A stretch of DNA of 64,000 nt, from the IMG/VR virus record IMGVR_UViG_3300045973_000169, positions 77,000 through 140,999 of that record. One strand, written 5' to 3'. Shown here in pieces: positions 3,433-10,078 of this stretch. Below the pieces are notes generated by a model, which saw only the letters and a program-made list of their open reading frames with translations, made no database searches and was not told the DNA's origin. This DNA is from a virus. The position numbers were made by a program, and so were the translations under genes. The number at the start of each line of letters is the position of its first letter. Within the stretch, counting starts at the first letter, position 1.

Positions 3433-3864
3433 ATGAAAGAGTTTCATTTTAAAAGTAAAGGTAGAATAGAGTATAATCCTGCTAGAGGGAATCTTAAGAA
3501 GAAACCTGATTGGTGGGCTATATTACATTGTAGTGAAGAGATAACTCGATATTATAGATATTGGGTCTATAAGAGATATCATATTCCTTTAAGTAAACCA
3601 TCATGGGGCTCTCATATTTCGATTATAAGAGGTGAGAAACCTTATGATGATCAGATGCATTTCTGGAAGAAGTATGATGGCTTAGAGGTTGAATTTGAGT
3701 ACTCTCATAACGTAAGACAGAGTGGTGATACTACTGGTTGGGATAGACCTGATAGTTATTGGTTTGTGGATGTTAAATGTGATTTTCTTATTGATATAAG
3801 GAAAGAGCTTAATTTAAAATATGATTATGGTTTACATATGACTATAGGGAGAACTTGGTTATGA
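3433..3864 (+). CDS. 2H phosphoesterase-like protein (T4 gp57B-like)
   Basis: 143 residues from the ATG at 3433. Two H-x-(S/T) motifs, SHISIIRGE and LHMTIGRTW, about 85 residues apart, are the signature of the 2H phosphoesterase superfamily (2'-5' RNA ligase / cyclic phosphodiesterase fold). The surrounding sequence WGSHISIIRGEKP is reminiscent of phage T4 gp57B. The likely chemistry is hydrolysis or ligation of 2',3'-cyclic or 2'-5' phosphodiesters. The biological substrate is unknown. The stop overlaps the next start (ATGA). Confidence 0.65.
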   Translation: MKEFHFKSKGRIEYNPARGNLKKKPDWWAILHCSEEITRYYRYWVYKRYHIPLSKPSWGSHISIIRGEKPYDDQMHFWKKYDGLEVEFEYSHNVRQSGDTTGWDRPDSYWFVDVKCDFLIDIRKELNLKYDYGLHMTIGRTWL

Positions 3865-4103
3865 AATGTCCTTATGGATATCACTTTGCTGTGGACTGGG
3901 GAATGTTTCCTGAGTGTGATAGCGTATGCCCTAATCCAGAGTACCATTACTGTAAGACTGTTAGAAGTGAATGTACTCATAAAGCTGATTTTGGATCAGA
4001 GATTATAGCAAATAGAGAAGCTAGGCTTCTATCAAATGAAAAAAGAAATTTTAATGGCTATCAGTGCAGTTACTGTGGTGGGTGGCATATAGGTCGTGGT
4101 TAA
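3861..4103 (+). CDS. Small Cys/His-rich zinc-binding-type protein, 80 residues
   Basis: The ATG overlaps the upstream stop. It has two Cys clusters, an N-terminal MKCPYGYH...CDSVC...YHYC segment and a C-terminal QCSYCGGWHIGRG. The final CxxCGGWHIG motif recurs in small phage proteins of unknown function. It probably binds zinc. Downstream, a stub of the next gene precedes an inserted endonuclease. Confidence 0.65.
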   Translation: MKCPYGYHFAVDWGMFPECDSVCPNPEYHYCKTVRSECTHKADFGSEIIANREARLLSNEKRNFNGYQCSYCGGWHIGRG

Positions 4104-4125
4104 AAGTTTTTCTAAGCGGAACTGA
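4100..4125 (+). pseudogene. 5' stub of nucleoside deoxyribosyltransferase gene
   Basis: Read in the frame of 4103 this encodes LKVFLSGTE, which is the usual N-terminus of the deoxyribosyltransferase-like family (K-V-F-x-x-GTCNGS). The stub stops at the GTTATTAACA module at 4126. The intact gene resumes after the endonuclease as MLAALMGTCNGSLWR (4732). So the endonuclease split the gene after the GT of GTCNGS and a new start replaced the lost strand. Confidence 0.6.
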
Positions 4126-4160
4126 GTTATTAACATATGTGCTAATGGAGGGCATATGTT
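4126..4160 (+). promoter_or_regulatory. GTTATTAACA motif plus RBS-enclosing hairpin (copy 1)
   Basis: GTTATTAACA at 4126-4135. Perfect 8-bp arms AACATATG (4132-4139) and CATATGTT (4153-4160) enclose the ribosome site GGAGG in the loop and end directly at the ATG. In a transcript that starts upstream, this fold would hide the start. A transcript starting at or after the 10-mer would lose the left arm and be translated. Confidence 0.75.
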
Positions 4161-4760
4161 ATGATAGGAATATATTTTATAAAGAATAAAATAAATAATA
4201 AAATGTATATAGGGCTTAGTACTAATATAGAAAATCGTTTTTTATTTCATAAACGAAGACTTTTAAGTAATACTCATAAAAATTCTCATTTTCAGTCATC
4301 TTTTAATGAAAATGGAATTGAAAATTTTGAATTTGGAATATTAGAAGAATGCATTGAAGTTATTCTATCTGAACGTGAGAAATATTGGATTTCTTTTTAT
4401 AGGAGCCACAATCGAGAGTTTGGATATAATAAAACTTTTGGTGGGGAGTTTGGTAAAATGTCTGATGAAATCAATGAAAGAAGAAGGCAAAAACTTAAAT
4501 TGCAAACTATTCCACAAGAAATGCGTGATAGAATCAGTAAAACATTAACTGGCAGAAAACAACCTAAAGAAGTAGTTGATAATAGGGCAAAGTCTTGTAG
4601 AAAATGTAATGATGAAATTGAGCAAAAAATAATAGATTTATATATTAATAAAAAATTAAATACTAAACAAATTTCTGAATTGTTGAATATAAAAAGAACA
4701 ACAGTTATTAGTATAGTTAAAAGGAATAAAAATGCTAGCAGCCCTAATGGGAACGTGTAA
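4161..4760 (+). CDS. GIY-YIG homing endonuclease
   Basis: 199 residues. The N-terminal GIY-YIG nuclease domain starts with GIYFIKNKINNKMYIG and has the downstream Arg and Glu positions (NIENRF, LSEREKYWI). Residues about 115-135 form a NUMOD3-type DNA-binding motif (RDRISKTLTGRKQPKE). The C-terminus is a helix-turn-helix (TKQISELLNIKRTTVISIVKR). Such free-standing enzymes cut an allele lacking them and spread by repair. The gene's last 29 bases overlap the start of the interrupted target gene. Confidence 0.9.
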   Translation: MIGIYFIKNKINNKMYIGLSTNIENRFLFHKRRLLSNTHKNSHFQSSFNENGIENFEFGILEECIEVILSEREKYWISFYRSHNREFGYNKTFGGEFGKMSDEINERRRQKLKLQTIPQEMRDRISKTLTGRKQPKEVVDNRAKSCRKCNDEIEQKIIDLYINKKLNTKQISELLNIKRTTVISIVKRNKNASSPNGNV

Positions 4761-5145
4761 TGGTAGTCTTTGGAGAGATGAATTAATCCCCCAATTAGAA
4801 GTTGATTATTTTAATCCTGTGGTTGCAGATTGGACTCCAGAATGTCAAGATGTTGAGCTTCAAAAAAGAGAAGAAGCGGATTTTGTTATCTATGTTATTA
4901 CTCCTAAAATGAAAGGCTTCTACTCTATTGCAGAAGCTGTTCATGATAGCTGTGATCAACCTTGGAAAACTATCTTTTGCTTCTTAATTGAAGACGAAGG
5001 TGAAACTTTTGATAAACATCAGATTAAATCTTTGGAAGCAACTGCTGCTCTTATATTAAGAAACGGTGGATTTATTGCTAAAGATCTTGCTGAAATTGCT
5101 TTTTGTGTTAATGCGGTAGCTAAAGCCTATGTCCAAAACAGTTAA
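4732..5145 (+). CDS. Nucleoside 2-deoxyribosyltransferase-like protein
   Basis: 137 residues. The motif GTCNGSLWRDELIPQL, then DYFNP and DWTPECQ, then EEADFVIYVITP and a Glu in SIAEAVHDS, fit the 'Nuc_deoxyri_tr2'-type branch of nucleoside deoxyribosyltransferases, which exchange the base of deoxynucleosides. The first six residues (MLAALM) are encoded within the end of the upstream endonuclease gene and substitute for the KVFLS strand left as a stub at 4100. The new N-terminus is still hydrophobic, so the protein may work. Confidence 0.75.
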   Translation: MLAALMGTCNGSLWRDELIPQLEVDYFNPVVADWTPECQDVELQKREEADFVIYVITPKMKGFYSIAEAVHDSCDQPWKTIFCFLIEDEGETFDKHQIKSLEATAALILRNGGFIAKDLAEIAFCVNAVAKAYVQNS

Positions 5146-5152
5146 GCTAATA

Positions 5153-5189
5153 ATGATCACACCAGAGAACAAACTATATTAACTATGTA
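5153..5189 (+). pseudogene. 5' stub of WGR/PARP gene
   Basis: ATG at 5153 begins MITPENKLY then meets TAA. In the next frame the DNA reads on to tat-gta (Tyr-Val) just before GTTATTAACA. The intact WGR gene starts MANSRTVKLIYVNG (5979). Aligning AAACTATATTAACTATGTA with AAGTTAATTTATGTA shows both encode K-L-x-Y-V. The stub has gained a frameshift, as expected for a discarded 5' end. Confidence 0.55.
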
Positions 5190-5229
5190 GTTATTAACAG
5201 TTACCATAATTAATAATTGGAGAACTGTT
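5190..5229 (+). promoter_or_regulatory. GTTATTAACA motif plus RBS-enclosing hairpin (copy 2)
   Basis: GTTATTAACA at 5190-5199. Arms AACAGTT (5196-5202) and AACTGTT (5223-5229) pair perfectly over 7 bp, with TTGGAG in the loop against the right arm and the ATG directly after. Same geometry as copy 1 although the arm sequence differs, so pairing rather than sequence is conserved. Confidence 0.75.
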
Positions 5230-6000
5230 ATGCAAGATAGAGAATATATAATTTATTGTTTTTTAGATGAGAATAATAAACCTTATTATGTTGGACAAAC
5301 TTATAATCTTAAGATGAGATTAAATGCCCATAATCAATTTATTTTAGATATTGAAGAAAAAAGATTACCATCTAAATACCCATATTATCGTAAGGCTAGA
5401 GATTTATTTAAAAATGGTATAGGATTAAAAGTAAATATATTAGAAAATAATCTTACCAAAAAAGAAGCAGACTTAAAAGAGTCTGAATATATTAGTAAGT
5501 TTAGAAATGATATTTCCTGTAAGTTATTAAATATTTTAGCTGGTGGTGAATTTAATCAAAGAAATAAATTTGTGTCTGATGAAACAAAAAAGAAAATAAG
5601 TGAATCTAAAAAAGGGAAAAAACTTACAGAAAAACATAAAGAGTCTTTAAGAAATTGTGATAGGAAACAAAGGAACTGGACAGAAGAAGATAAAATTAAA
5701 TATGCTAAAATGGCAAAAATAAATTTATTGAATAAACAAACTCCAGAGAGTATTGAAAAGATGCGTCAGTCTAAAGTTGGGCAAAAACATTCTGAAGAAA
5801 CTAAAAGTAAAATAGCAAGATTTGGGAAAGATCATAAAAGAGCAAAGCACTATTTGATTATTGCCCCAGATGGGACTAATTACGATATTCATGGACTTTC
5901 TTCTTTTTGTAAAGAATTTGATTTAAACCAAAGTGGACTATGGCATGCTCTTAATAAAGGAAATGGTAAATATAAGGGATGGCAAATTCAAGAACTGTAA
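5230..6000 (+). CDS. GIY-YIG homing endonuclease with NUMOD3 repeats
   Basis: 256 residues. The variant GIY-YIG core is YIIYCFLDENNKPYYVGQT, with the catalytic-type Arg in LKMRLNAH and Glu in KESEYISKF. Two NUMOD3 motifs follow (DETKKKISESKKGKKLTE and SEETKSKIARFGKDH). The C-terminal domain (HGLSSFCKEFDLNQSGLWHAL) is a NUMOD1-like DNA-binding helix-turn-helix. Its last 22 bases encode, in another frame, the new N-terminus of the PARP gene. Only distantly similar to the GIY-YIG enzyme at 4161, despite the shared upstream module. Confidence 0.88.
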   Translation: MQDREYIIYCFLDENNKPYYVGQTYNLKMRLNAHNQFILDIEEKRLPSKYPYYRKARDLFKNGIGLKVNILENNLTKKEADLKESEYISKFRNDISCKLLNILAGGEFNQRNKFVSDETKKKISESKKGKKLTEKHKESLRNCDRKQRNWTEEDKIKYAKMAKINLLNKQTPESIEKMRQSKVGQKHSEETKSKIARFGKDHKRAKHYLIIAPDGTNYDIHGLSSFCKEFDLNQSGLWHALNKGNGKYKGWQIQEL

Positions 6001-7169
6001 AGTTAATTTATGTAAATGGGATTGGGGCTAACAATAATAAGTTCTATGATATGATCGATACAGAAGACGGATATTTTACTATTAAATATGGTCGAGTAGG
6101 ATCTACTGAAACTGTAGATAAGAAAGCTATTGGTAAATGGGATTCTGTATATAGAGAGAAGACTCGTAAGGGTTATAAAGATATTACTAAGTTGTATATA
6201 GAAGAGAAAGTGGATGTAGTTGATTTTGCTGATATTAGTGATTATGCTATTAAAGAGATAATTGCTAAATTGCAAGCTTATTCTAAGAAACAAGTAACTA
6301 CATTCTATACTATCTCTGCTGAAAAAGTAACTAAGAAACAAGTAGATGAAGCTCAAACTATTTTAGATGGATTGATCCCATGTAAAGATGTTGAGTGTGC
6401 CAATAAGCTACTTATTGATTTATACTCTGTTATACCTAGAGCTATGAGTCATGTTAAGCATCATTTACTTTCTAGTTTTGAACAGAAAACTCTTGATAAT
6501 ATGATAGCTAGAGAACAATCTATTCTTGACTCAATGGCTTCTTCTGTTAAGCAGGTTGAACTTGTAAGAGAGAATATAGATTCTAGTAAGACTTTACTTG
6601 ATGCTCTTGGTGTAGAAGTATATCAAACAATGCCTAGTGATGTAGATCTTATTAAAATGAAATTAGATAACTTAGTTGATAGATATTTGAACTCATTTAG
6701 AGTAGTTAACAAAAAGACTCAGGTTAAGTTTGATAATTTTGTAAATAAAATTGATAACAAAAAGACAGAGTTATTCTGGCATGGGAGTAGAAATGAAAAC
6801 TGGATTTCAATACTTGAAACTGGTTTGGTCTTACGTCCGACCAATGCTGTTATTTCTGGGAAGATGTTTGGGTATGGCACCTACTTCGCAGACAAGGCTC
6901 AAAAATCCCTAGGATATACCTCTTCTTATGGTTCACTGTGGGCTAAAGGAAGTTCTAATGAAGCCTATATGTCATTGTTTGATGTCCATGTTGGGAATCA
7001 ATATATAGTTGAACAGAGTGAATCTAACCTTGATGCACAAAAGTTAAAGGCTAAAGGTAACTTTCATTCTACTTTTGCTAAAGCTGGTAGATCATTAATG
7101 AACAATGAATATATTGTTTATGATGAAGATCAATCTACAATTAAATATCTTGTACAATTAAAAGGATAA
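5979..7169 (+). CDS. WGR-domain PARP-like ADP-ribosyltransferase
   Basis: 396 residues. Residues about 8-75 form a WGR domain (KLIYVNG...NKFYDMID...YFTIKYGRVGSTE). A helical region (about 100-245) corresponds to the PARP regulatory domain. The C-terminal catalytic domain has FWHGSR (His), GYGTYFADKAQKSLGY (Tyr) and a Glu in NEYIVYD, giving the H-Y-E triad of true poly/mono-ADP-ribosyltransferases. It should use NAD+ to modify protein or nucleic acid, possibly sensing DNA ends through WGR. It starts inside the upstream endonuclease gene; its original 5' end is left at 5153. Confidence 0.85.
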   Translation: MANSRTVKLIYVNGIGANNNKFYDMIDTEDGYFTIKYGRVGSTETVDKKAIGKWDSVYREKTRKGYKDITKLYIEEKVDVVDFADISDYAIKEIIAKLQAYSKKQVTTFYTISAEKVTKKQVDEAQTILDGLIPCKDVECANKLLIDLYSVIPRAMSHVKHHLLSSFEQKTLDNMIAREQSILDSMASSVKQVELVRENIDSSKTLLDALGVEVYQTMPSDVDLIKMKLDNLVDRYLNSFRVVNKKTQVKFDNFVNKIDNKKTELFWHGSRNENWISILETGLVLRPTNAVISGKMFGYGTYFADKAQKSLGYTSSYGSLWAKGSSNEAYMSLFDVHVGNQYIVEQSESNLDAQKLKAKGNFHSTFAKAGRSLMNNEYIVYDEDQSTIKYLVQLKG

Positions 7170-9481: not shown

Positions 9482-10078
9482 ATGCTGTGTTACTATGGTT
9501 GTGGTCAAGAGGCCGGGTTTGAATTAAAGAATGGAAGACATATATGTTCTTCATCATCAAATCAATGTCCAGTACAAAAAAAGAAAAATTCAGAGAATAG
9601 TAATAATAGATATTTTAAAATTAATGCCTCTGCTATTAAAAGTAAATGTAAGTTCTGTAACAAAGAGATTTCATCTACTAGTATTAAAGTTCATGAATTA
9701 AATTGTTTTCTTAATCCAGAAAATATTAAATTATGTCCTGTATGTAATAAGCCAATTAAAAATTTTAGAAAATCAAATACATGCTCTTATGGTTGTTCGA
9801 ATACATTTTTTAGAAGCGGTAAAGATCATCCAAATTGGAAAGAGGATATAGATTGTGGATATAGAAAAATATGTTTTAGTGTCCATAAAAAAGAATGTAT
9901 TATATGTGGAGAAGTTAAAATAGTTGCAGTACATCATTTTGATGAAAATAAAAATAATAATAATATTGATAATTTAATTCCTTTATGTCCTACACACCAT
10001 GTATATTGGCATTCAGGATATAAAAATGAAATTGAACAAAAAGTAATTGATTATAGAAATAAATTTAAATCTGCTTAA
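9482..10078 (+). CDS. HNH homing endonuclease with Cys-rich N-terminus
   Basis: 198 residues. The N-terminal half has several CxxC-like zinc motifs (CYYGCGQ, CKFCNKEI, CPVCNKPI, CSYGC). The C-terminal HNH core is ECIICGEVKIVAVHHFDENK, with NNIDNLIPLCPTHHVYWHSG giving the N and last H with two zinc Cys pairs. Nothing in it suggests a host metabolic role. It sits between tRNA-Pro and a CAT-anticodon tRNA within the tRNA cluster and carries the standard GTTATTAACA module. Confidence 0.85.
   Translation: MLCYYGCGQEAGFELKNGRHICSSSSNQCPVQKKKNSENSNNRYFKINASAIKSKCKFCNKEISSTSIKVHELNCFLNPENIKLCPVCNKPIKNFRKSNTCSYGCSNTFFRSGKDHPNWKEDIDCGYRKICFSVHKKECIICGEVKIVAVHHFDENKNNNNIDNLIPLCPTHHVYWHSGYKNEIEQKVIDYRNKFKSA

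What the first reader, a model, noticed from the sequence alone, without database searches (positions are those of the whole stretch)
4100..5145. Deoxyribosyltransferase gene split and rebuilt with a new start by an endonuclease
The stub before the module (4100-4125) encodes LKVFLSGT, the normal N-terminus; after the endonuclease the gene resumes as GTCNGSLWRDE, but with its own ATG and the substitute MLAALM encoded in the endonuclease's 3' end. So insertion did not kill the gene. An intron would not need a second start. The duplicated GT codons (GGAACT/GGAACG) mark the join.
Basis: partly seen in the sequence, partly recalled or inferred. Interest (0 to 1): 0.72.

Follow-up and report, generated by a model that had tools for sequence, protein, structure and literature searches.

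The report
Homing endonuclease carrying a replacement gene start
In this large virus a DNA-cutting mobile gene has jumped into the front of an enzyme gene and brought its own substitute front end, so the enzyme gene stays open; the same trick recurs in the next gene and in several unrelated phage genes, so it looks like a general way for such parasites to invade genes without killing them.

Summary
Window 4100-4123 encodes LKVFLSGT, the start of a nucleoside-deoxyribosyltransferase-like gene. It is cut off by a 199-aa GIY-YIG endonuclease gene (4161-4760). The enzyme gene resumes at 4756 (CNGSLWRDE) behind a new ATG (4732) inside the endonuclease's 3' end, and MLAALMGT replaces the stub codon for codon. 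Uninterrupted homologues read KVFLGGTCN without a gap; none has MLAALM. A related 216-kb virus carries the same endonuclease (62% identical) at the same codon, with the same stub and new ATG, but its donated start is canonical (MQENQTIRVFLGGT), which identifies the new start as cargo. The next gene in the window (PARP/WGR) has the same architecture, and a relative of it keeps only the tail of a lost endonuclease. A survey of 112 endonuclease loci found four further target genes with a stub plus a duplicate start (primase, PTH2, connector, sulfotransferase-like) and weaker cases; most stub-to-donor differences are synonymous. No intron was detected. Weak point: MLAALMGT loses two nearly invariant residues of FLGGT, so activity of this particular enzyme is unproven. 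It is an N-terminal mirror of fungal mitochondrial mobile ORFs that replace C-termini; I found no description in phages in the library searched.

The parts
4100..4123 (+). Native 5' stub of the deoxyribosyltransferase-like gene (LKVFLSGT), without a start codon
   Evidence: matches KVFLGGT of homologues; 24 of 28 nt (4100-4127) shared with the stub in G001
4132..4160 (+). RNA hairpin AACATATG/CATATGTT with the Shine-Dalgarno GGAGG (4147-4151) in its loop, just before the endonuclease ATG
   Evidence: -14.4 kcal/mol, z -5.5 (4124-4170); the G001 equivalent -21.9 kcal/mol, z -6.4
4161..4760 (+). GIY-YIG homing endonuclease gene (199 aa), C-terminal HTH-like region
   Evidence: 62% identical relative at the same site in G001
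4732..4755 (+). Donated start MLAALMGT inside the endonuclease 3' end, with AAAGGA upstream of the ATG
   Evidence: predicted strand residues 2-6
4732..5145 (+). Rebuilt deoxyribosyltransferase-like gene (137 aa); native body from 4756
   Evidence: PF15891 27.6 bits (cut-off 30); AlphaFold pLDDT 95.4; PDB fold neighbours include deoxyribosyltransferases
5129..5182 (+). Native 5' stub of the PARP/WGR gene (MSKTVKLIMITPENKLY*), second case of the architecture
   Evidence: the relative L042 reads MATRTAKLLMITPENNNKFYNM
5196..5229 (+). RNA hairpin AACAGTT...GGAGAACTGTT over the second endonuclease's ribosome-binding site
   Evidence: -10.3 kcal/mol, z -2.8
5230..6000 (+). Second GIY-YIG endonuclease gene (256 aa, NUMOD3 motifs)
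5979..7169 (+). Rebuilt PARP/WGR gene with donated start MANSRTVKLIYVNGIGA...
   Evidence: footprint of the same element in L041

Best explanation
A free-standing GIY-YIG homing endonuclease gene has invaded the 5' coding region of a nucleoside-deoxyribosyltransferase-like gene and carries, in and just behind its own 3' end, a replacement start (ribosome-binding site, ATG and about 8 codons) for that gene. The old start remains upstream as an untranslated stub. Inferred mechanism: the endonuclease cuts the intact 5' coding region of an uninvaded co-infecting relative, and repair copies the endonuclease plus the differently coded start. That keeps the target gene translatable, destroys the homing site, and leaves too little identity between stub and donor for the element to be looped out. 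Shown by sequence: stub, endonuclease, new start, join at one codon, recurrence. Inferred: cutting, homing, immunity, and activity of the rebuilt enzyme.
For: Uninterrupted homologues run KVFLGGTCN without a gap, and L060 is an empty-site allele next to phoH. G001 has the same endonuclease, stub and ATG with the canonical donated start MQENQTIRVFLGGTCN. Endonuclease and enzyme body have diverged equally between the two viruses (61.7% and 61.2% aa, third positions least alike; endonuclease dN 0.30, dS 2.1), so both have been kept under constraint. The next gene has a second case. L041 keeps a stub joined to the last endonuclease codons and the donated start, with the endonuclease gone. Survey of 112 non-redundant loci: 6 score at least 40, against 0.09% of mismatched pairs. 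Stub versus donor over eight cases: 44 synonymous and 10 non-synonymous codon changes. AlphaFold places the donated residues as strand 1.
Against: The window's donated start has lost F and the first G of FLGGT, kept in nearly all homologues, so this copy may be impaired. Stub and MLAALM show no significant similarity. The window-to-G001 comparison cannot separate a single ancestral insertion from repeated homing. The target cut site is not known. The AlphaFold alignment pulls the model towards the family fold.
Confidence: 0.78

Rival explanations
1. The rebuilt gene is decaying. The insertion broke the enzyme gene, and the ATG at 4732 is a chance start that gives a non-functional or marginal product.
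For: F4A and G6M in the nearly invariant motif; DDSNKRP is changed to HDSCDQPW; the window is less like L060 (62%) than G001 is (71%); Pfam score just below the cut-off.
Against: 137 codons stay open; the invariant E68 and most conserved residues are kept; first and second codon positions are far more conserved than third; the new ATG is homologous to the working-looking one in G001.
Confidence: 0.3
2. The insert is removed at the RNA or translation level: a group I intron, trans-splicing, or a T4 gene 60-like ribosome hop between the matching GGA codons.
For: The stub ends and the gene resumes at matching GGA-AC codons; the stub is conserved between two viruses (24 of 28 nt).
Against: No Rfam intron match. 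The stub has no start codon in either virus. G001 carries a complete second FLGGT, so joining would duplicate it, and its codons there are GGC, not GGA. The insert is over 600 nt.
Confidence: 0.04
3. Tandem duplication: two copies of the gene lay side by side, the endonuclease landed between or in the first, and the first copy decayed to a stub.
For: A full duplicate start exists in several cases; L328 has both copies of a longer stretch.
Against: In each N-terminal case only the 5' end remains and it stops at the endonuclease boundary; donors differ from stubs mostly at synonymous sites, as copies from different lineages would.
Confidence: 0.12

Closest known systems
Fungal mitochondrial mobile ORFs that replace gene C-termini (Allomyces atp6; Glomus atp6, atp9, cox2, nad3; PMC3630166)
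   Same: An endonuclease gene carries a foreign, differently coded terminal piece of its target gene; the native piece stays behind as a remnant; the gene remains a hybrid.
   Different: There the 3' end is replaced and the upstream start is kept. Here the 5' end is replaced, so a new ribosome-binding site and start codon must be supplied. Phage, not mitochondria.
mobE split of nrdA in Aeromonas phage Aeh1 and mobA at T4 gene 60 (PMC2988022)
   Same: A free-standing homing endonuclease inserted in a phage gene that stays functional.
   Different: There both pieces are translated and assemble as two polypeptides. Here the stub has no start codon and one rebuilt polypeptide is predicted.
Hairpin-sequestered ribosome-binding sites of I-TevI, segB and Aeh1 mobE (PMC2988022)
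   Same: A stem-loop covers the endonuclease's Shine-Dalgarno.
   Different: Late promoters were not tested here.
T4 seg genes (free-standing GIY-YIG endonucleases)
   Same: GIY-YIG nuclease gene without an intron, targeting a neighbouring gene.
   Different: seg genes sit between genes; the passages read of the review describe none as donating a gene start.

Membership tests
GIY-YIG homing endonuclease | GIY-YIG catalytic domain above the Pfam cut-off | tested here: met
   39.8 bits vs 22.6; GIY and YIG motifs in GIYFIKNKINNKMYIG
GIY-YIG homing endonuclease | C-terminal DNA-binding module | tested here: inconclusive
   HTH-type hits at residues 150-192 (E 3e-4) but below curated cut-offs
GIY-YIG homing endonuclease | Cuts the empty allele and is copied into it | not testable with these tools
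   Needs a cleavage assay and a phage cross
Group I intron | Conserved ribozyme core | tested here: not met
   No Rfam intron hit in 3800-6200 even at E up to 5
Nucleoside 2-deoxyribosyltransferase-like (PF15891) | Profile match and conserved motifs | tested here: inconclusive
   27.6 bits, E 3.8e-6, but cut-off 30; SIAE, WR and NPVV kept, FLGGT not; fold neighbours include deoxyribosyltransferases, all E above 0.001
Mobile ORF with replacement terminus (fungal type) | Endonuclease plus a replacement terminus of the target, native terminus left as remnant | tested here: met
   Met in mirror image (N-terminus): window twice, G001, L050, L169, L264, L284
Mobile ORF with replacement terminus (fungal type) | The hybrid gene is transcribed, the native remnant is not used | not testable with these tools
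   Stub lacks a start codon here, but no RNA data
Genes-in-pieces split (Aeh1 nrdA type) | Both halves are separate translated genes | tested here: not met
   Stub starts TTA (window) and ATA (G001); no in-frame usual start in G001

The most novel reading that the evidence does not exclude
Phage homing endonuclease genes commonly travel with a differently coded copy of the first codons of their target gene. It acts as a repair patch and immunity tag at once, and the element is in effect an N-terminus-swapping machine. The old start is kept as a non-coding site, possibly an operator by which the endonuclease represses itself, as I-TevI does at a mimic of its homing site.
Probability: 0.4. Interest if true: 0.78.

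Novelty: new variant of a known kind. Interest (0 to 1): 0.62.

Why it matters
Free-standing endonucleases lack the splicing that lets introns and inteins enter coding sequence harmlessly, and are mostly described as sitting between genes or splitting them. Supplying a differently coded start would let them enter essential 5' coding regions, protect the invaded allele from cutting, and resist precise loss. It also swaps protein N-termini between viruses. Annotation software would call such genes intact and miss the event, so the pattern is probably under-reported, and it can be found by a simple scan.

Tried and rejected
Group I intron: Rfam at E up to 5 gave only chance matches. Ribosome hop or trans-splicing: rejected because of the missing start codon and the full second motif in G001. 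Direct DNA neighbours in phage GenBank: only one distant hit. PDB by sequence: nothing meaningful. Stub DNA pattern in IMG/VR: only G001. Genome collection scan with the endonuclease: only distant relatives. HNH endonucleases of this virus: no comparable stub stood out. Several survey hits at p about 0.01-0.05 (L184/L185, L054, L209, L316, L330) look like chance, with short or odd-frame ORFs. L044 has an endonuclease before PARP but no stub was recognised.

Full report
What is there. The window is positions 77000-140999 of a 206,638-base IMG/VR virus record. At 4100-4123 the sequence TTAAAAGTTTTTCTAAGCGGAACT reads LKVFLSGT and is then cut off. A short leader holds a hairpin with the Shine-Dalgarno sequence GGAGG in its loop (4132-4160; -14.4 kcal/mol, z -5.5). 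The endonuclease gene follows at 4161-4760, 199 aa, GIY-YIG at 39.8 bits against a cut-off of 22.6. The enzyme gene resumes as CNGSLWRDE at 4756, but its ATG lies at 4732, inside the endonuclease's 3' end, after AAAGGA. The product is MLAALMGTCNGSLWRDE..., 137 aa.

Is the stub the old start? Yes. Homologues from viral contigs and phages begin (M)KVFLGGTCN... without interruption. In the aligned set, F4 and G6 of the motif are conserved in at least 90% of sequences, and the window departs at both (F4A, G6M). No homologue has MLAALM. The closest empty site is L060, where the gene follows phoH directly and starts ATGAACGGAAAAGTTTTCTTAGGCGGGACATGTAAC. The stub replaces eight codons by eight codons, and the shared GGAAC doublet marks the join.

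The key relative. A 215,974-base virus (G001; L046) has the same endonuclease, 62% identical, in the same codon of the same gene. The stub there is ATAAAAGTCTTCCTAAGAGGAACTGAGT, 24 of 28 bases identical to window 4100-4127. It is again followed by a strong hairpin (-21.9 kcal/mol, z -6.4). The enzyme gene restarts inside the endonuclease's 3' end at the corresponding ATG (AAAAATGC in both), but with a complete canonical start, MQENQTIRVFLGGTCND. The unit has different genes on its left in the two viruses. Endonuclease and enzyme body have diverged alike (61.7% and 61.2% aa), with third codon positions least conserved. The simplest reading is an old insertion, with both genes kept under constraint since.

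A second case next door. The following gene is a PARP with a WGR domain. Its old start is still visible at 5129: ATGTCCAAAACAGTTAAGCTAATAATGATCACACCAGAGAAC, MSKTVKLIMITPEN, to be compared with MATRTAKLLMITPENNNKFYNM in the uninterrupted relative L042. Then come a hairpin over the ribosome-binding site, a second GIY-YIG endonuclease (5230-6000), and an overlapping restart at 5979, MANSRTVKLIYVNGIGANNNKFYDM. In another relative, L041, the endonuclease is gone. A stub (MAKMIKLI) is joined directly to the last codons of the endonuclease (NGKYKGWTIKIL, window NGKYKGWQIQEL), and the PARP gene starts inside that remnant (MDYKNIIKLIYVGAENNNNKYY). The donated start therefore appears to have outlived its endonuclease.

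Is it general? I collected GIY-YIG loci from IMG/VR and asked whether the sequence before the endonuclease encodes the first residues of the gene behind it. In 112 non-redundant loci with a downstream frame, 6 scored at least 40, against 0.09% of 6,664 mismatched pairs. Two of those six are near-copies (L284/L285), and one is a longer duplication of the opposite, C-terminal kind (L328). The clear N-terminal ones are L169 (DnaG-type primase), L050 (PTH2), L284 (gp6-like connector) and L264 (sulfotransferase family), with family names. L154 (an unnamed 717-aa gene), G001 and the window's PARP score 32-36 and are supported by position and codon pattern. L314 and L291 are weaker. In L050, L154, L264 and L284 the stub is fused in frame to the endonuclease, which thus uses the target's own start. 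Stub and donor encode nearly the same residues with different codons: over eight cases, 20 codons identical, 44 synonymous, 10 non-synonymous. These loci were chosen by similarity, so this is not a frequency estimate.

How it probably works (inference). The endonuclease cuts the intact 5' end of the gene in an uninvaded relative. Repair on the invaded genome copies the endonuclease and the alternative start. The differently coded start removes the homing site, keeps the gene readable, and gives little identity for deletion between stub and donor. The hairpin would delay endonuclease translation, as described for I-TevI, segB and Aeh1 mobE (PMC2988022). The stub is better conserved (24/28) than third positions of the endonuclease would predict (52%; P about 2e-4), although it has no start codon. 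One untested idea is that it serves as an operator, since I-TevI represses itself at a mimic of its homing site (PMC2988022).

Does the window's own enzyme work? Open question. AlphaFold gives a confident model with the donated residues as strand 1 (pLDDT 95.4), and its best structural neighbours include deoxyribosyltransferases, though with weak E-values. Entry titles there name Y7F and A9S mutants of such an enzyme, which suggests (an inference from titles only) that the first strand borders the active site. The loss of F and G at this motif could change or weaken activity.

Known or new? Splitting of phage genes by endonucleases is known, but with both halves translated (Aeh1 nrdA, T4 gene 60). 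Replacement of a gene's end by endonuclease cargo is known for C-termini in fungal mitochondria (PMC3630166). I found no description of N-terminal replacement in phages in the papers searched. That library is open-access only, so the absence is weak evidence.

Noticed in passing
L041:2943-3010: Footprint of a lost endonuclease: stub MAKMIKLI joined by a short shared sequence to the last endonuclease codons, with the PARP gene starting inside the remnant.
   Followed up: yes
L328:1380-2480: Possible C-terminal version in a phage: about 50 residues (TELF.FE.TIANFFICGW.SAGTSYLLSM) occur both at the end of the gene before the endonuclease and, without a clear start, behind it.
   Followed up: partly
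window 4100-4127 and L046:821-848: The untranslated stub is 24/28 identical between two viruses whose endonucleases share 66% of bases; both stubs also carry AGN instead of GGN at motif position 6, and the upstream gene's TAA stop overlaps the stub in both.
   Followed up: partly
L041:2420-2842 (- strand): A frame resembling a Vsr-like or similar small nuclease (by eye only) lies just upstream of the PARP footprint, so the site may attract endonucleases.
   Followed up: no
window 9482-10078: A 198-aa frame with HNH-like cysteine/histidine motifs (by eye), probably another endonuclease; several HNH hits lie elsewhere in the record.
   Followed up: no
window 3434-3864: Frame with HISI...HMTIG motifs, looking like a 2'-5' RNA ligase/phosphoesterase (by eye).
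   Followed up: no
G004:C1:5247-5498 (L052): A GIY-YIG match read through two TAG codons, perhaps a decayed gene or a virus with TAG reassigned.
   Followed up: no
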